This document shows positions 2 through 11,802 of a stretch of 64,000 nucleotides of DNA, one piece after another; within the stretch, counting starts at the first letter, position 1, and each line of letters opens with the position of its first letter. Source of the DNA: Chondrosia reniformis (Eukaryota > Porifera > Demospongiae > Chondrillida > Chondrillidae). The notes below the pieces were generated by a model. It made no database searches. It had not been told where the DNA came from and saw only the letters and a program-made list of their open reading frames with translations. The stretch is taken from contig OX359202.1 of NCBI GenBank assembly GCA_947172415.1, positions 126,501 through 190,500 of the forward strand, written 5' to 3'. The translations under genes and the position numbers were made by a program.

Positions 2-3000
2 GACATTACTGAAGTCCACCTGGCTCATCAGATAGCTGAGAAGGCTGACACCTTCTTTGCCTCTGTGACATCACATGATGCCTTGAAAGATGAAATTAAG
101 CATCTTTTGGACGACCTGTCAGAAGCAAGGTAATTATAAGTGGGTGTGTCTATGGGTGTGGGCGTGTCTATGGGTGTGGGCGTGTCTATGGGTGTGGGCG
201 TGTCTATGGGTGTGGGCGTGTCTATGGGTGTGGGTGTGTCTATGGGTGTGGGCGTGTCTATGGGTGTGGGCGTGTCTATGGGTGTGGGTAGGCTTGTAAT
301 GGTATTCTCCATTTTGCAGGAAGAACTTGAAGTTGTTAAACGAGACTGTCGCAGCTGATCACATGAAGTTGCTCCATCTAGGTGCCAAGAGGTATCGCAG
401 TCAACTGGTCTACAACATGCTGCGGATCCTGTGGGCGGTACAGCAGACTCCGCCCACCATCAAGTTGCTACTAAGCACATCAGATTTTGTGGGAGCCCTG
501 GATTTGATAGCCAGTACAAAGGAAGCTCTTCAGACAGATCTCGTGGGAGTCCACTGCGTCAGGTTTGTGTGGCATAAAGTAACTGTTAAGTCCACTGCTT
601 CCGTCTATCTGTCAGACTTTGTATGTAGAGTGTGAATGTGGTCATTTAATGAGCTTTACATGTGCACTGGATGTTGTAGGCATTTGTATTCAGAGCTAGA
701 TGAGATGGAGAAAGCAATTGAGAAGATGATGGAAGATGATTTTGCAGCTCTTGTACTGGAATATATAAAGGACATAGCCTCCCAAGGCCTCCAATCAGAG
801 ACGGGGGGCGGAGTCAACATTGTGGAGGAGAGACTGAACTCAATCACTGTGGGACTCATTCATCAAGGTAAACTGAAGCTGGCCAGCTCTCTGAGGGAGA
901 TAATACTGCCCTGGATCAAGAGCAATGTGAGAGAGGTAAACGTGTGGGTCTTCTAGAGTGGGAGGGGTTTTCTAGAGTGGGAGTGGTTTAAGTAGTTTCC
1001 TTATATGGTCTTGTAGACAGCCAGAAGAAAATTAAAGATGGCTGACCGGGAGTCACCGGAACAAGATTCAGCCAAGTAAGTAGTGGCATACGTGTATTGT
1101 GTGCATGTGTATAATGTATCCACTCTGTTGTGTGTTGTAGAATGGGTGATCTCGTGAGGTCTCAGGAGTTTAAGGAATGGCTGATGCTCCTGGAGAACGT
1201 CTTTAATAGAATGCTAGTATCACTGAGAGCCACGCAGGTGAGTAGTGCAACTGGCAGCTCATCCACTGTGTATCTACATTGAGTCTTCCCTTTGTGCAGC
1301 GTGCTCTGACCTTTATATTGTCAGTCATGAAGGCCGAGGTGGGGTCTGGTCCTAACGACTTCCTGTCCCAGCAGTCCACCCGGGACGTCAGTGTGCCCGC
1401 CCTATCAGGCACTGTCAGCCCTCCAGAAGGAAGGCTGGCTGAGGGGCAGGTGAATGAGACCAGCTATGAGTCTGTTGCTAGGCAACTAGAAGCAGCTGAG
1501 AAAATGGATCAACTTGTGATTGAAGATGAGCTAGCATCTGCTCTTGCAAGTGGTGGGACTGTAGCCATGGCAACTAAAGGTACTGTAACACAGCAAGAAC
1601 TGACTGACCTGGACAGAGGTATACAAAAGGATGATGGCTTGGGTTCAAAGGTCACCACAAGTGACATCCCGGGACAGAGGTATGTACAAATGTGTGAGAC
1701 TGTCAATCTTAAATCTTTGTCTTCTTTTACTTGTGATTAGAGTTACGAATGGAAAGCTGGCAAGGGAGGACGTCAAGAGGTTGTTTATGGATGGTCATGA
1801 GCTGTTATGTGCCGTAGCTGATTTTGCACATGGAAGGTGTACCAAATTATTGGGATTTAGAGCAAAGGTTGCTACTCTGACCTTTGTACCTTGACCTTAG
1901 CTTAGACTGTTTTGTCTTTCAACACAGGGAGGCCAACTTGAGAATTTGCATTCGAATGAATTTGTGTCTCTAGTCAGACTAATAGAGAAGTTTGTGAACG
2001 ACACGGCACAGATTACAGGGCGGCAGTGTCCAAGCCTTCGAGCACCCCTACTGTCTCATGTGAGCTGAACGGCCGACTGTTTCTGTTGCCATGGTAGCAC
2101 TGTTTTGTGACACCTCCTTTTTAAATATAGTCAAAGAAGTTTCTAGAACAGTTTCATGAAACGAGGAGTTCCAAATTGAGGTATTTTTGCTGTTATTGTA
2201 TGGTTTGTGTTGGGACCACACTCGTAATTACAGGAAGCTAGCTGGCTTCTGTTACCTTCCTCCTCAGTTTACTGTTGGATGGAGAAAGGTGGAAACAGAC
2301 AGATGTTCCACAGGAAATACAAAACCTGGTTTACACTCTCGAAGGGAATGTTGATCCAAAGGAGGCCATTGACCAAAAGACCAAGGGCTTCCTCATTGTC
2401 AAGGGACAGAACTTCACTGTAGTAGGGTCAGTGGAGGAGTCATGTGTCTTCTTGTAGCTGTAAAATAATATTCTAGAATATGTCAACTTTTCAGTTCAAT
2501 TTCATTTCTTGACGTGTAATTGTGAGATTACCTTGGGAATCTTTAATTCTAAAAGGAGCAGTTTTGATTTGTAATGTCTCTCCCCTGGTTGTCCTGTTTG
2601 ATTGAACCCTTTTAAACAAAGCTTTTATTCCTTTTAATTCTGTGGAAGCCATGAGACAGTCTTGTCAACCACAAATTGATAGTAAAGATGTACTTTACAT
2701 TAAAATTATTATACAATTTTTATTTCAATTTGAACATTCTGCTGTCTTGGAATGTCCGGTATTCTTTATCATTTCAGTGTTGTCCTACTGCTCATTAAGA
2801 TGATGGTGGAGTACTGTGATTGCGCAACAGACCTACCAATGCTGGCCTATGATGTAATGAACAAACTAGTTGAAGTCATGAAGGTATTGTGCAACATTTA
2901 ATATCGTTGCATAAATCAGACCACACCCCCTTGTCTACCTCTGCAGCTCTTCAACATGAGATCCTGTCAGCTGGTACTAGGAGCAGGTGCAGTGCAAGCC

Positions 3001-3863
3001 ATTGGACTAAAGACCATTACTGCCCGACACCTTGGTATGCGGTCACTGGAGGTCTGCACACATACATACTGTAGATATAGCTCCCATCAAGTAAACTTCA
3101 GTTCCACCCATTAGCTCATTGTGCTCCTCAGGAGACATGAGTGGGTGGGGTAGATCCAGAGGCAAATGATAATGATAATAAGTGCATGTTCTTGACTGCA
3201 GGACTAGTGTATCGGTGTCTTCAAGCAGTCATTCTGTTGATCCCCGATTTGAGAGAGTACTTTCGGAGTTTTTTAAGCAAACAACACAATGTTCTACTGA
3301 CACAGTTTGATCGTCTGTTACAAGATTACCAGACTCACTGCAGGGAACTGGCAAAGAAACTTAAGACAATTATGGAAGATGGGTTTATCAAACATTTGTC
3401 CAAGGTCTGGCTTCTTACATATTGAATTGAAACTGCCCACTTTCATATTGCTCCTCCAATCTGCAGTGGGAAATTAGAGCACCTATTCCTTCCAACAGCT
3501 TCAAGGCCATCACTAAGCAGATGGTGAAGCTTCATGAAGCCTTGGTTGACATCTTTCCAGAGGATCAGTTGGGAGGAGTGTTTGCAGGCGTGGAGGAGGT
3601 GCTTTGCTCACACGTCCGACAGCAAGTCAATCGGTTAGGAGTCACAAACAATGGCAGCACGCAGCATGGGTAAGCAGCTTCACAAGCCTGACCCTACATC
3701 ACTAGAGTGTGGCACATGCTTGTATCTTTCTAAATGCTTGCTTCTGTGTATCGTTTCAATTTGCAGCTTGGTTAATTCTGAACTGACCCTCTTTAGAGGA
3801 ACAATTGCTTCACTAGATGGTCTGGACAGATTTGGTGAAACTCTCTTTAACATTTGGACCTGA
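2..3863 (+). CDS. VPS54: VPS54, GARP complex subunit (5' partial)
   Basis: The 3' part of the VPS54 gene, whose product is the GARP subunit that tethers endosome-derived vesicles to the trans-Golgi. The window opens inside an exon (2-130, reading DITEVHLAHQIAEKADTF). Splicing from AG at 130 to the exon at 320 gives KNLKLLNETVAADH. Further exons read LLLSTSDFVGALDLIAS (about 470-520), EERLNSITVGLIHQGKLKL (827-885), DGERWKQTDVPQEIQNLV (2278-2331), LVLGAGAVQAIGLKTITARH (about 2970-3030) and a last exon ending FGETLFNIWT before the stop at 3861-3863. These blocks fall in the same order as in animal VPS54, including the conserved C-terminal domain. The N-terminal third lies outside the window. An 18-bp minisatellite fills the first visible intron. 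Family assignment is firm; internal exon limits were joined by eye. Confidence 0.93.
139..294. repeat. 18-bp minisatellite in VPS54 intron
   Basis: About eight near-perfect copies of GTGTCTATGGGTGTGGGC lie in the intron that runs from the donor at 131 to the acceptor at 318-319. The array is open in several frames but the flanking exons join cleanly without it, so it is intronic and not coding. Confidence 0.9.
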
Positions 3864-3867
3864 CATT

Positions 3868-3985
3868 TATTTATTTATTGTATTTGAATCTATAAAAACA
3901 ACTATACTTCTATACAAAATTAAAACTATCATTAAAAAACAGTTTGGCAATTTGAAATACAATATATGATAAAAATAAAGATTAA
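3868..3985. other. Convergent 3' ends with poly(A) signals on both strands
   Basis: A/T-rich spacer between the VPS54 stop (3863) and the IL-17-like stop (3986). AATAAA on the + strand at about 3974-3979 would serve VPS54. The run of ATTTATTTATTTATTG at about 3867-3882 reads as AATAAATAAAT on the - strand and would serve the opposing gene. Both sites seen directly; use is inferred. The two 3' UTRs would overlap antisense. Confidence 0.55.
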
Positions 3986-4516
3986 TTATACAGTATACTG
4001 TTGATCATTCTCTCTGTGGCAGGCACAGCCTGTAGACACTGTATAATCCTCAATGTCCCACACCTTCTCTCCCGTCATCTTGTCTTCATTTTGTTTTATC
4101 ACTTTTGTGGAGCTCAGGAACTCTTTACACTGACACTCTCCTGAACTGCTTGAATCTAAAATTAAGTAATCTACGACCAATGGCTGAGAGCATTTGGCGT
4201 GAAATATGAAGGCAGGTATTCTGTTTGCCACATAATCACATGTGTATTCCCAGCGACACAGCATACTCTGTGACAGAGGAGTGCTATGGGACTTTGCCCA
4301 GTTATTGCATCTCTCAGCTGTTTCATCCAATCCAAATCTTGTTCTCTGGGCTCTCTCTAACTTTTCCCAAGCCTTAGCCAAATTATCTACACTTGGGTTA
4401 TGAATGTGTTCTCTTGAATCTCTAATAACAGACTGTTCATTCTCTTTTGAATCAACTGGTAGACTGGACACTGACAGTAAAAAGTAAGAACAAAGCCATA
4501 AGTGATAAAGAAACAT
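3986..4516 (-). CDS. Secreted IL-17-like cystine-knot cytokine candidate
   Basis: A single-exon 176-residue protein. Residues 1-19 form a hydrophobic signal peptide (YHLWLCSYFLLSVSSLP), followed by a charged linker to about residue 66. The C-terminal half has the IL-17 layout: a CxWEY..D..xNRxP....xAKC segment (residues 87-109, with C87, C93, C109), then ECQC (C128, C130), a short strand ending TKVIKQ, and finally DYTVSTGCACH (C164, C166), which corresponds to the hallmark V.VGCTCV ending of IL-17 ligands. Length is also typical of the family (150-200 aa). IL-17 ligands are secreted dimers that signal through SEFIR-domain receptors; whether this one does is inference. The first 67 residues and upstream region are duplicated at 9809-10309. 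Alternative: an unrelated small cysteine-rich secreted protein. No intron was needed. Confidence 0.6.
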   Translation of the reverse strand: MFLYHLWLCSYFLLSVSSLPVDSKENEQSVIRDSREHIHNPSVDNLAKAWEKLERAQRTRFGLDETAERCNNWAKSHSTPLSQSMLCRWEYTCDYVANRIPAFIFHAKCSQPLVVDYLILDSSSSGECQCKEFLSSTKVIKQNEDKMTGEKVWDIEDYTVSTGCACHRENDQQYTV

Positions 4517-6116
4517 ATTTTGTTAAAGGATAAAACTTTATTAAAACTGCCTGCTTCTCAGGAATTCATCTTTTTATGTAACGTTGAGAATAAGGGACTG
4601 ATATGCCTTTACCATAAATGGATGGAATGAAAGTGACTTAATATGAAACTCAGCACCGTTTCCAGTCCCTTTTCTTCAGAATTGTTCATTTCCTCAATTT
4701 TTGTGTCCTCGAACATGGGCTGACGTTCCTTCCTTTAAGGAGCAACATATGACAAAACAATGTATAAATTTAAATGTTTTCATATACACTACATTTGTGG
4801 ATGTATATATATTTGCCTAATTTGAACCAAAACTATGTCTGCTGTGGATGTACTGTATATATGTCTGCTGCACGGTACACGTGTTACACTAATACTTTAG
4901 TGGAAACAAACTCTGTCTTGTACAATCTTTGTACAACTGCAGGCTATAAGACTTGTATCTACATTATATGTTTGAACTTGAATTTGTATGCAATTACATT
5001 TTGAAAGACACATTACTTAATAATTGAATACTTATCAACTATTTGTAATATAAGGTAACTTTTTTGGAATATCTGTAAACCTCATTCAATATTCAATATT
5101 ACGTATATCATTGTATAGATATTTTCCATGTTCAAAGTGTTCAGTGAAACCCAATTATAGAATTAAAACTTGACAAAATGTATATATGTATGTACATCAT
5201 CAGGAGCAACTGACTGAATATGAAAATGGATCTAATTCCTACTATGACAGGCATCTAAAAATAACTTTTACCTTGCATTGTTAGCAAAACAGTGCAATGA
5301 AAAATATTTACAAAATATTCCTACCAAAGTGACTTCATATTTACAATTCTTATATTGAAATATTAATGGTTTATTTTAATAAGGCACCATTGCCATATAT
5401 GTGTATGTACCATGCCTGTACTGGTACATGCTAATAGCGAAACTAAGAGAGTTCATGATCATGCATCATTAGATATGTGAATTCAAGCAAAATGCTTTTA
5501 CACATGTACAATCTCTCAAATCTCTCTTAGTCTACATTAAATATCATTTCTTTTATATACCATCTTAATGTATGGTGAGAGATAGGGCAAACTATATATA
5601 AGTATCCATCAAAATTTCCAAAACTCATTGAACATTATTTATGGATGTCTGCACAGGCACCATATGACTGTTCCGCGTTAAATTGCATTAAACCGTTAAC
5701 GCTTTTACAAGTTAATTTCTCAGCGTAGGAATAACTAATGCCTTTCAAAATTTATATTTAAAGTCTTTATGGTTAGAATAATAATATAATAGCACGTCTC
5801 TGTTTAATTAGTTAGCCAGGCACCTAATTATGAGGCAGTTCATAAAAGGTACGTATTTAGTGGAGTTCTACCTGGCAACACCTAAAATGTGGTTACATCA
5901 GTTATGCAGACACTTTTATAATTACGTAGATGTATGAGAAATCCATCATACATATACGTATGTATATTCCTTAGCAAAAGGACATTCATTGTTTTAAGAA
6001 TTACTTATACGTATAAGCTACACCTTTACGTACGCATCTTCAAATCTTAGCTTGTTCTGTAAATCAGGTGGAGAAATGTGCCACCAAGCACAATGTATAT
6101 TAATTACATGTATGCA
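4517..6116. other. A/T-rich gene-free stretch
   Basis: No ORF with recognisable similarity. 4517-4818 is the upstream region of the IL-17-like gene and recurs at 10010-10309. About 5570-5670 holds one degenerate unit of the 170-bp satellite family in inverted orientation (TGTATGGTGAGAGATAGGGC). The rest is A/T-rich with no structure I can name. Confidence 0.5.
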
Positions 6117-7968: not shown

Positions 7969-9808
7969 AAACTATAACACTATTATTGTATAAAATGTTA
8001 AGCACCAGCCATACTTATTATACAGTTCTCTGTATAGTATTCCTTAGTACGGTCGTCGGGCTTTCCAAGTTTGTTTTTCGATGGCTTCGAGATATTAGTC
8101 GTTCTAATGCAAAAGGTTAAATAAACACATTCAAAAAGAAAGAAGAACAATCGGTTTTGGAAGGCGCTTTGCCTGAAGGTGCAGTTAACTTGGACTTGAT
8201 CGTTTATGGCGAACTATAATGTGCTCTGCATTAGGGAATGAATCATTAAATATCGAGGTTAGACAGTTCGTTTTAATTCTGTCAGGATAGAAAAGCGTGG
8301 AATACATTAAAGCGTTGGTTAATCATAGCGACTCACAGCCAGGTTTAGCAGCATGCAATGACACAACTCCAATATACGCGCTCGCATGTATAAACAATAT
8401 ATATAGTCCGTATTTTTTGCTTTAAAATAAGATTGTGAATTCATATGCATACAATTTCCATAACTATATCCTATATGCTGCTCCCATTCTTCATCCACGT
8501 GTACAAGTAGACGATGCTTAACATTCAGTGTACTTCAATTTGGTATTCCAGTATATTAATGTACATTTGGTACTCTAACTCTGTCAAATGGAAAGATATG
8601 AAGCTCAAACTTTCTGTCAGCATTCACAGACATGTATGAAACATTTCCAATGAGAATTTGAAATTTTCATAAATCTTTACATTTGCCCTATCTCTCACCA
8701 TACATTAATTTGGTATTCCAGTATATGAATGTACATTTGGTGCTCTAACTCTGTCAAATGGAAAGATATGAAACTCAAACTTGCTGTCAGCATTCACAGA
8801 CATGTATGAAACAGTTCCAATGACAATTTGAAATTTTCATAAATCTTTACATTTGCCCTATCTCTCACCATACATTAATTTGGTATTCAAGTATATGAAT
8901 GTACATTTGGTGCTCTAACTCTGTCAAATGGAAAGATATGAAGCTCAAACTTGCTGTCAGCATTCACAGACATGTATGAAACATTTCCAATGAGAATTTG
9001 AAATTTTCATAAATCTTTACATTTGCCCTATCTCTCAGCATACATTAATTTGGTATTCCAGTATATTAATGTACATTTGGTGGTCTAACTCTGTAAAATG
9101 GAAAGATATGAAGCTCAAATTTAAACTTGCTGTCAGCATTCACAGACATGTGTGAAACATTTCCAATGACAATTTGAAATTTTCATAAATCTTTACATTT
9201 GCCCTATCTCTCACCATACATTAATTTGGTATTCCAGTATATTAATGTACATTTGGTGCTCTAACTCTGTCAAATGGAAAGATATGAAGCTCAAACTTGC
9301 TGTCAGCATTCACAGACATGTATGAAACATTTCCAATGACAATTTGAAATTTTCATAAATCTTTACATTTGCCCTATCTCTCACCATACATTAACTTAAA
9401 TGTACATTTAGTGATGTAACTCTGTCAAATTGGTAAATTTGAAGCTTAAACTTGGTATTCACATTCACATACAAGTATGAAACATTTCCAAACAGTTTTA
9501 GAAATATTGATTTTTACAGAAATTTACCCTATCTTTCCCCATACATTTTCTTAATACAATGTACACTTAGTGCTGTAACTCTGTCAAATGGCTAAATATG
9601 AAGTTTAAACTTTGTGTCTACATTCACAGACATGTATGAAACATTTCCAAACAGTTTTAGAAATTTTGATTTCTACATAAATTCCTCATCATACATTAAC
9701 TAACCCTAATTGCGTAATACTATAAATGGCCGACCTTGAGTAGGTGTAAGAGTGAACATGCCGTACTGTATATATTTCTGAAAAAATAGAACTCTTTGAA
9801 AGATTTCT
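7969..9808 (+). repeat. Repeat block X, copy 1
   Basis: Starts AAACTATAACACTATTATTG and ends TTTGAAAGATTTCT. It is nearly identical to 10310-11802. It contains a unique head of about 550 bases (bounded by AATGTTAAGCA near 7997 and its inverse TGCTTAACATT near 8515), then five units of the 170-bp satellite, then a tail with AATTGCGTAATACTATAAAT. In this copy the tail runs straight into the truncated IL-17-like duplicate. Confidence 0.75.
8525..9400. repeat. 170-bp satellite array 1
   Basis: Five units. TACATTAATT recurs at 8701, 8871, 9041, 9217 and (as TACATTAACT) 9387, giving spacings of 170, 170, 176 and 170. Each unit carries AACTCTGTCAAATGGAAAG, CATTCACAGACATGTATGAA and TTGCCCTATCTCTCACCAT. 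Two more degenerate units follow to about 9690. Confidence 0.92.
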
Positions 9809-10009
9809 AGCTGTTTCATCCAATCCAAATCTTGTTCTCTGGGCTCTCTCTAACTTTTCCCAAGCCTTAGCCAAATTATCTACACTTGGGTTATGAATGT
9901 GTTCTCTTGAATCTCTAATAACAGACTGTTCATTCTCTTCTGAATCAACTGGTAGACTGGACACTGACAGTAAAAAGTAGGAACAAAGCCATAAGTGATA
10001 AAGAAACAT
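9689..10009 (-). pseudogene. Truncated duplicate of the IL-17-like gene (5' half only)
   Basis: Residues 1-67 match the 3986-4516 gene with one visible change (K24 to E). The match stops abruptly at GGATGAAACAGCT, after which the frame runs into repeat X sequence and ends after about 40 unrelated residues. All cysteines of the cystine-knot half are missing, so the IL-17-like fold cannot form. The upstream region is duplicated as well (10010-10309 matching 4517-4818). It could still be transcribed and secrete a short peptide; I regard it as a broken copy. Confidence 0.75.
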
Positions 10010-10309
10010 ATTTTGTTAAAGGATAAAACTTTATTAAAACTGCCTGCTTCTCAGGAATTTATCTTTTTATGCAACATTGAGAATAAGGGACTGATATGCC
10101 TTTACCATAAATGGATGGAAATGAAAATGACTTAATGAAACTCAGCACCGTTTCCAGTCCCTTTTCCTCAGAATTGTTCATTTCCTCAATTTTTGTGTCC
10201 TCGAACATGGGCTGACGTTCCTTCCTTTAAGGAGCAACATATGACAAAACAATGTATAAATTTAAATGTTTTCATATACAAATACACTACATTTGTGGAT
10301 GTATATATA

Positions 10310-11802
10310 TTTAAACTATAACACTATTATTGTATAAAATGTTAAGCACCAGCCATACTTATTATACAGTTCTCTGTATAGTATTCCTTAGTACGGTCGT
10401 CGGGCTTTCCAAGTTTGTTTTTCGATGGCTTCGAGATATTAGTCGTTCTAATGCAAAAGGTTAAATAAACACATTCAAAAAGAAAGAAGAACAATCGGTT
10501 TTGGAAGGCGCTTTGCCTGAAGGTGCAGTTAACTTGGACTTGATCGTTTATGGCGAACTATAATGTGCTCTGCATTAGGGAATGAATCATTAAATATCGA
10601 GGTTAGACAGTTCGTTTTAATTCTGTCAGGATAGAAAAGCGTGGAATACATTGAAGCTTTGGTTAATCATAGCGACTCACAGCCAGGTTTAGCAGCATGC
10701 AATGACACAACTCCAATACGCGCTCGCATGTATAAACAATATATATAGTCCGTATTTTTTGCTTTAAAATAAGATTGTGAATTCATATGCATACAATTTC
10801 CATAACTATATCCTATATGCTGCTCCCATTCTTCATCCACGTGTACAAGTAGACGATGCTTAACATTCAGTGTACTTTAATTTGGTATTCCAGTATATTA
10901 ATGTACATTTGGTGCTCTAACTCTGTCAAATGGAAAGATATGAAGCTCAAACTTTCTGTCAGCATTCACAGACATGTATGAAACATTTCCAATGACAATT
11001 TGAAATTTTCATAAATCTTTACATTTGCCCTATCTCTCACTATACATTAATTTGGTATTCCAGTATATGAATGTACATTTGGTGCTCTAACTCTGTCAAA
11101 TGGAAAGATATGAAGCTCAAACTTTCTGTCAGCATTCACAGACATGTATGAAACATTTCCAATGACAATTTGAAATTTTCATAAATCTTTACATTTGCCC
11201 TATCTCTCACTATACATTAATTTGGTATTCCAGTATATTAATGTACATTTGGTGCTCTAACTCTGTCAAATGGAAAGATATGAAGCTCAAACTTGGTGTC
11301 TCTATTCACAGACATGTATGAAACATTTCCAATGACAATTTGAAATTTTCATAAATCTTTACATTTGCCCTATCTCTCACCATACATTAACTTAAATGTA
11401 CATTTAGTGATGTAACTCTGTCAAATTGGTAAATTTGAAGCTTAAACTTGGTATCCACATTCACATACAAGTATGAAACATTTCCAAACAGTTTTAGAAA
11501 TTTTGATTTTTACATAAATTTACCCTATCTTTCCCCATACATTTTCTTAATACAATGTACACTTAGTGCTGTAACTCTGTCAAATGGCTAAATATGAAGT
11601 TTAAACTTTGTGTCTACATTCACAGACATGTATGAAACATTTCCAAACAGTTTTAGAAATTTTGATTTCTACATAAATTTCTCATCATACATTAACTAAC
11701 CCTAATTGCGTAATACTATAAATGGCCGACCTTGAGTAGGTGTAAGAGTGAACATGCCGTACTGTATATATTTCTGAAAAAATAGAACTCTTTGAAAGAT
11801 TT
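10310..11802 (+). repeat. Repeat block X, copy 2
   Basis: Second copy of 7969-9808 with three full 170-bp satellite units rather than five (about 10,875-11,390) and the same tail. Its tail continues into repeat Z (TTATACACATGGATATGCAC), the arrangement also seen near 15,517, which suggests X-tail plus Z is the ancestral order and that the IL-17 fragment interrupts copy 1. Confidence 0.75.

What the first reader, a model, noticed from the sequence alone, without database searches (positions are those of the whole stretch)
3986..4516. Candidate IL-17-like cytokine in what looks like a non-bilaterian animal
The 176-residue secreted protein has the IL-17 landmarks in order: a W.Y...D...NR.P....AKC segment (residues 88-109), a middle ECQC, and the terminal V..GCACH that lines up with the V.VGCTCV end of IL-17 ligands. 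Signal peptide, length and single-domain form also fit. To my knowledge IL-17 ligands are described mainly from bilaterians, so a sponge-type member would move the origin of this cytokine family earlier. The cysteine after AKC is absent at its usual place, so the knot may be rearranged.
Basis: partly seen in the sequence, partly recalled or inferred. Interest (0 to 1): 0.85.

Follow-up and report, generated by a model that had tools for sequence, protein, structure and literature searches.

The report
IL-17-type cytokine gene in a sponge
A sponge genome carries a small family of genes for probably secreted proteins that belong to the interleukin-17 group of immune signalling molecules, which two published surveys had not found in the one sponge they examined, so this signal is probably older than they concluded.

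Summary
An intact 176-codon ORF lies on the MINUS strand at 3986-4516; its protein passes the Pfam IL17 cut-off (30.6 bits, cut-off 24). The genome matches the demosponge Chondrosia reniformis. The gene is one of 14 full-length single-frame paralogues on five chromosomes, nine on chromosome 14. A profile of 13 sponge sequences finds IL-17F (1.3e-7), IL-17A and IL-25 in the PDB, nothing else below E=0.1. Two cysteines reported as typical of invertebrate IL-17s are invariant in 14 of 14; the position of IL-17F C77 is empty. Cysteine patterns across paralogues suggest that the first C of CQC replaced it (inferred). No IL-17 receptor ectodomain was recognised (controls silent too); the one SEFIR frame lies beside a Death-domain frame, as in an adaptor. 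Surveys of 2015 and 2021 did not find IL-17 in Amphimedon, though the second notes one Pfam record. So: a real IL-17-family member that probably pushes the family's origin back. Function, receptor and disulfides are untested; structure models were too poor to use.

The parts
3986..4516 (-). Intact 176-codon ORF, IL-17-family protein (P0001), ATG at 4516, stop at 3986-3988, no intron in the coding part
4463..4516 (-). Probable signal peptide, residues 1-18 (cleavage after VSS, by eye)
   Evidence: Sequence; hydrophobicity (marginal for this member); helix 2-16 lies in the best-scored part of a poor model. No predictor was run.
4016..4261 (-). IL17 domain, residues 86-167
   Evidence: Pfam PF06083 E=4.6e-7, profile positions 2-80 of 81
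3866..3879 (-). Overlapping AATAAA signals 107-120 bases after the stop codon, possible poly(A) signal
   Evidence: no transcript data
9803..10312 (-). Truncated duplicate: about 300 bases of 5' flank plus the first ~69 codons, 96.5% identical to 4309-4814, without the IL17 domain; probably a pseudogene

Best explanation
The ORF encodes a secreted IL-17-family ligand of the demosponge Chondrosia reniformis, one of 14 paralogues. After signal-peptide removal the 8 cysteines would form four bonds: C87-C130 (the third disulfide reported for invertebrate IL-17s), C109-C164 (as IL-17F C72-C122), C128-C166 (replacing IL-17F C77-C124 with the partner moved to the next strand), and C70-C93. It would form an IL-17-type dimer without the IL-17F inter-chain bond through C107, because it has no cysteine between C130 and C164. 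The dimer would be released by epithelial or mesohyl cells and bind a cell-surface receptor that is not yet identified, and the signal would pass through a Death-SEFIR adaptor towards NF-kB-type responses. Shown: family membership, gene family, intact reading frames, purifying selection in two paralogue pairs, a Death and a SEFIR open frame side by side. Inferred: secretion, disulfides, dimer, receptor, splicing of the adaptor, pathway, immune role. I put family membership at about 0.95 and the cytokine mechanism at about 0.5.
For: Pfam IL17 over cut-off. 13 of the 13 members of A1, the window protein included, match PF06083 at E<=1, best 1.5e-12; 11 of 13 genomic matches are over the cut-off. 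Sponge-only profile against the PDB: IL-17F 1.3e-7, IL-17A 5.1e-7 to 1.1e-5, IL-25 8e-4; the only other row of 26 is a RIFIN at 0.17. One paralogue alone finds IL-17A at 1.4e-5. The alignment puts C87 on the S of SPW and C130 on the S of NSVP; two serines in chordates are reported to replace cysteines of invertebrate IL-17s, with CPW/SPW as the motif (passages of PMC4517768 and PMC8353272). Cysteine concordance: C109/C164 14 of 14; C128/C166 13 of 14 as aligned (14 of 14 after setting L021 by hand); C70/C93 13 of 14; the two cross pairs 9 of 14; the best other pair 11 of 14. dN/dS 0.19 and 0.42 in two pairs (from dN and dS). Death frame (E=2.5e-6) followed by SEFIR frame (2.2e-8). Weak: in a Foldseek search of the poor model the first 45 of the 50 rows shown are IL-17A or IL-17F entries, none significant.
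Against: Alone, this protein finds only IL-25 at a non-significant 0.015 in the PDB, followed by weaker unrelated rows. No IL-17 receptor ectodomain (PF16556, PF16578, PF15037) rang in the genome, but the controls did not ring either, so this is uninformative. No second SEFIR was found, though the SEFIR controls were silent as well. Structure models are poor: pLDDT 46 and 48, and Foldseek E is at best 0.043 with TM below 0.3. Cysteine concordance rests on one independent comparison over supported branches for each pair, so it is not significant. The window member lacks any counterpart of the IL-17F inter-chain cysteine. No RNA evidence was available. The NF-kB motif count upstream of this gene is 0. 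The 14th paralogue gave no IL17 match in Pfam, and two others fall below the cut-off.
Confidence: 0.72

Rival explanations
1. True IL-17-fold family, but not a SEFIR-receptor cytokine: the sponge proteins act through another receptor, for example an Ig-TIR receptor, or directly, for example on microbes or matrix.
For: No IL-17 receptor was recognised, while frames with an Ig domain, a hydrophobic segment and a TIR start lie in a row on C10 (L062). The family is divergent (14-30% identity of the other 12 members of A1 to P0001).
Against: A Death frame and a SEFIR frame sit side by side, which fits IL-17-type or MyD88-type signalling. Receptor absence was tested exon by exon with Pfam profiles whose controls did not ring.
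Confidence: 0.22
2. Another cystine-knot growth factor (TGF-beta, NGF, Trunk or PTTH type) that resembles IL-17 by convergence.
For: Cystine-knot families share spacing motifs (general knowledge); a TGF-beta frame lies beside one paralogue.
Against: PF06083 is the only Pfam family listed for P0001 at E<=10. The sponge profile finds IL-17s and no other knot family in the PDB.
Confidence: 0.03
3. A decaying, unexpressed copy.
For: A truncated duplicate lies 5.5 kb along. No transcript data. All 13 other members have at least one N-glycosylation motif and this one has none.
Against: Intact ORF with all core landmarks; 84.7 bits against a profile of the other 13.
Confidence: 0.06
4. Contaminant sequence from a mollusc or other animal in the sponge assembly.
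For: None found; sponges harbour foreign organisms.
Against: The 14 genes lie on five chromosome-scale scaffolds of an assembly whose lengths match the published Hi-C-confirmed one.
Confidence: 0.01

Closest known systems
Vertebrate IL-17A and IL-17F
   Same: W-Y-D-NR-P-AKC segment, GCxC end, domain length; sponge profile hits at 1.3e-7 to 1.1e-5
   Different: No cysteine at the C77 position; cysteines where these chains have serines; this member has no counterpart of the C107 inter-chain cysteine; a single coding exon, whereas 29 of 34 vertebrate genes in PMC4517768 have two introns (passage)
Invertebrate (mollusc, echinoderm, annelid) IL-17s
   Same: Third-disulfide cysteines with the C-x-W motif; large families with genes in clusters, as reported in passages of PMC8353272
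   Different: CQC with the second knot cysteine apparently moved; no direct sequence comparison was possible, as no such sequences were held
Amphimedon queenslandica Pfam record A0A1X7VXB1 (residues 359-442)
   Same: Reported IL17 domain in a sponge (passage of PMC8353272)
   Different: The domain lies at residue 359, so in a longer protein; those authors could not find the gene in the genome; sequence not seen here
Placozoan Death-SEFIR protein (PMC6321704 passages)
   Same: Death plus SEFIR, resembling both MyD88 and CIKS; matches the pair of frames on C4
   Different: A different animal; an adaptor and not a ligand; splicing of the sponge pair not shown

Membership tests
IL-17 ligand family (PF06083) | Profile match over the curated cut-off | tested here: met
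   30.6 bits against 24, positions 2-80 of 81
IL-17 ligand family (PF06083) | Reverse search from the new family finds known IL-17s first | tested here: met
   25 of 26 PDB sequences at E<=10 are IL-17F, IL-17A or IL-25; the remaining one is a RIFIN at 0.17. The window protein alone does not do this significantly.
IL-17 ligand family (PF06083) | Knot cysteines at the IL-17F C72, C122 and C124 positions | tested here: met
   C109, C164 and C166
IL-17 ligand family (PF06083) | A fourth knot cysteine able to pair with the C124 counterpart | tested here: inconclusive
   The C77 position itself is empty in 14 of 14; replacement by C128 is inferred from paralogues only
IL-17 ligand family (PF06083) | Two extra cysteines of invertebrate IL-17s (CPW and a second serine position of chordates) | tested here: met
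   C87 and C130 invariant in 14 of 14; positions; literature passages. That the second serine is the one in NSVP is my reading of the alignment.
IL-17 ligand family (PF06083) | Cystine-knot fold and dimer | tested here: inconclusive
   Models at pLDDT 46 and 48; Foldseek E at best 0.043
IL-17 ligand family (PF06083) | Secretion signal | tested here: inconclusive
   Hydrophobic N-terminus by eye; no predictor
IL-17 ligand family (PF06083) | Binds an IL-17 receptor and signals | not testable with these tools
   No receptor recognised; needs experiment

The most novel reading that the evidence does not exclude
Sponges keep a multi-gene IL-17 system with a relocated knot disulfide, and it signals through a Death-SEFIR adaptor without any canonical SEFIR transmembrane receptor. 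That would be an ancestral state in which IL-17 ligands preceded IL-17 receptors and used an Ig-TIR or unknown receptor.
Probability: 0.2. Interest if true: 0.85.

Novelty: new member of a known kind. Interest (0 to 1): 0.6.

Why it matters
IL-17 is a central epithelial-immunity cytokine whose origin was placed first in nematodes (2015) and then in cnidarians (2021). If inherited vertically, a 14-gene family in a demosponge puts it at least in the common ancestor of sponges and the other animals that have it. It also gives a concrete system in which to ask how IL-17 worked before specialised immune cells, and what its first receptor was.

Tried and rejected
Viral contigs: 3 stretches matched a pattern, none encodes a relative. 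NCBIfam: nothing for the protein or the SEFIR frame. PHROGs: one match at 0.17, noise. NF-kB-like motifs upstream: 3 in 14 kb over the 14 genes against 0.36 (sd 0.61) expected from mononucleotide shuffles, none upstream of this gene; too weak to use. Gene tree: only 1 of 11 inner branches well supported, so no order of duplications is claimed; a second tree without the cysteine columns moved L009 and L027, which shows how weak the trees are. N-terminal cysteine with the RFxC cysteine: 11 of 14 concordant, not significant. Structure: both models were folded without an alignment and are too poor; Foldseek was run on the first only. No tree with other animals' IL-17s could be built and no other sponge, ctenophore or choanoflagellate genome was searched: apart from the window's own genome, the collections I could search are of prokaryotes, viruses and plasmids. 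Transfer from a bilaterian was therefore not tested.

Full report
What is there. It starts with ATG at 4516, ends with TAA at 3986 and encodes 176 residues.

Which organism. The window lies at C14:126501-190500 of a genome of 117,379,552 bases in 15 contigs. Contig lengths (C1 10,409,357; C14 6,754,398; C15 17,451) agree with the published assembly odChoReni1.1 of the kidney sponge Chondrosia reniformis: 117.37 Mb, chromosome 1 of 10.41 Mb, chromosome 14 of 6.75 Mb, mitochondrion 17.45 kb (passages of PMC12181767). Taxonomy: Porifera, Demospongiae. The match is by lengths; no marker gene was compared.

Family membership. Pfam gives one family for the protein, IL17, E=4.6e-7, above the curated cut-off. 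A phmmer search of the PDB with this protein alone gives IL-25 at a non-significant 0.015, followed by nitrite reductases, so the single sequence is too divergent for a pairwise claim. With its relatives the claim is strong. Profile search of the genome found 13 IL17 matches, 11 over the cut-off; protein searches added one more. All 14 are uninterrupted open frames of 169-200 residues, on C3 (two), C5, C11, C13 and C14 (nine, eight of them within C14:342781-348146 and C14:913944-939783). Thirteen of the 14 match PF06083 in hmmscan at E<=1; the 14th, L027:7947-8495, does not but scores 59.7 bits against a profile of the other 13. The profile of 13 sponge proteins finds IL-17F at 1.3e-7, IL-17A and IL-25 in the PDB, and apart from them only a RIFIN at 0.17. 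One sponge paralogue on its own, L009, finds IL-17A at 1.4e-5. Such single-protein searches were run for two of the 14 only.

Controls. Left out of the profile, the window protein scores 84.7 bits against the other 13; the best of its 999 shuffled versions, of which 996 were scored, reached 10.0. Two close pairs show dN 0.256 and dS 1.356 (L010, L011) and dN 0.093 and dS 0.221 (L013, L014), so coding constraint is present there; the window gene against L010 is saturated (dS 3.4).

Cysteines. By the alignment, in the numbering of that IL-17F chain, AKC is C72 and GCxC is C122 and C124. The cysteine after VLRF in most sponge members falls two columns before IL-17F C107, so their equivalence is a guess. 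That C72-C122 and C77-C124 are the two intrachain bonds of IL-17F, and C107 an inter-chain one, is recalled from Hymowitz 2001, which is not held; a held paper states two intramolecular and two inter-chain disulfides for IL-17A and IL-17F (passage of PMC4869123). Invertebrate IL-17s are reported to have two further cysteines where chordates have serines (passages of PMC4517768 and PMC8353272). The sponge proteins have cysteines at the SPW and NSVP serine positions, C87 and C130 here, in 14 of 14. None of the 14 has a cysteine within six residues after the AKC position. The AKC cysteine and the first of GCxC are present together in 8 and absent together in 6 of 14. The first C of CQC and the second of GCxC agree in 13 of 14 as aligned, the exception being L021, where a gap places a different cysteine in that column; set by hand it is 14 of 14. 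C70 and C93 agree in 13 of 14. The two cross pairs agree in 9 of 14, and the best other column pair in 11 of 14. Since C87 and C130 are left over, the eight mature cysteines of the window protein fall into four pairs. Caveats: related genes are not independent, and only one comparison over well-supported branches exists for each pair, so this is a consistent picture and not a statistical proof; and 7 of the 14 proteins have an odd number of cysteines after residue 25, so four intrachain bonds cannot be the whole account for them. The window protein has no cysteine between C130 and C164.

Pathway. The genome has one SEFIR match, and a protein search with that frame found no second copy (one other row at E=1.75 with two stops); the 14 control genomes were silent, so sensitivity to a divergent SEFIR is unknown. 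An open frame with a Death domain (PF00531 E=2.5e-6; best PDB hit MyD88, E=0.005) ends about 170 bases before the SEFIR frame on the same strand. This looks like the Death-SEFIR protein described in placozoans (passages of PMC6321704); that the two are spliced together was not shown. Dysidea avara, another demosponge, is reported to have one (text) or two (table) SEFIR sequences (passages of PMC12909245). IL-17 receptor ectodomain profiles found nothing, but neither did the controls, so receptor absence is not shown. A candidate Ig plus hydrophobic segment plus TIR set exists on C10.

Structure. Two AlphaFold models without alignment were poor (pLDDT 46.2 and 48.3). The first shows four strands at 87-96, 100-109, 135-144 and 151-160, mostly at pLDDT under 50. 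A PDB fold search with it listed IL-17A or IL-17F entries in the first 45 of the 50 rows shown (342 matches at E<=10), the best at E=0.043 and TM under 0.3; this is not significant and may reflect sequence.

What is known. PMC4517768 (2015) found no IL-17 in Amphimedon, Hydra, Nematostella or Trichoplax (passages). PMC8353272 (2021) found none in Amphimedon or Hydra, found it in other cnidarians, and noted a Pfam record from Amphimedon that could not be located in the genome (passages). Searches of the held library listed no paper whose title or abstract start reports IL-17 ligands in sponges. Three of those lists were cut short (12 of 51, 10 of 201 and 10 of 229 papers shown), and not all listed papers were opened; the sponge papers that were searched for passages showed KEGG pathway names, SEFIR counts or nothing on IL-17. 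Subscription journals and preprints are not covered, and the published Ensembl annotation of this genome may already tag the gene.

Verdict. An IL-17-family gene in a sponge, part of a 14-gene family, with an inferred relocation of one knot disulfide. Membership is well supported; function, receptor and disulfides are inferred.

Noticed in passing
window 9803-10312 (-): Recent partial duplicate of the IL-17 gene's 5' half and flank (96.5% identical), without the IL17 domain, in a stretch with several copies of the motif TTAATGTATGGTGAGAGATAGGGCAAA.
   Followed up: partly
L067 (C11), ORF 655-3294: An 880-codon uninterrupted frame with two TIR_2 stretches and weak SLOG-type matches (LDcluster4 9.5e-5, below its cut-off; STALD 0.003), a combination reminiscent of TIR-SLOG immune proteins.
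   Followed up: partly
L062 (C10): Frames for an Ig domain (8.4e-9), a hydrophobic segment and the start of a TIR domain (8.5e-12) in a row: candidate Ig-TIR receptor.
   Followed up: partly
L029 4506-5156 (+), C14:912506-913156: A TGF-beta ligand frame (1.6e-18) lies about 800 bases from IL-17 paralogue L011, tail to tail.
   Followed up: partly
window about 35400-57040 (-): A long run of ORFs that by eye look like Calx-beta repeats of one giant adhesion protein (ADGRV1-like); not tested.
   Followed up: no
C14:342781-348146 and C3:2435093-2436896: The six IL-17 paralogues in these two clusters lack both the AKC cysteine and the first cysteine of GCxC, so a two-branched family with a missing knot bond may exist.
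   Followed up: partly
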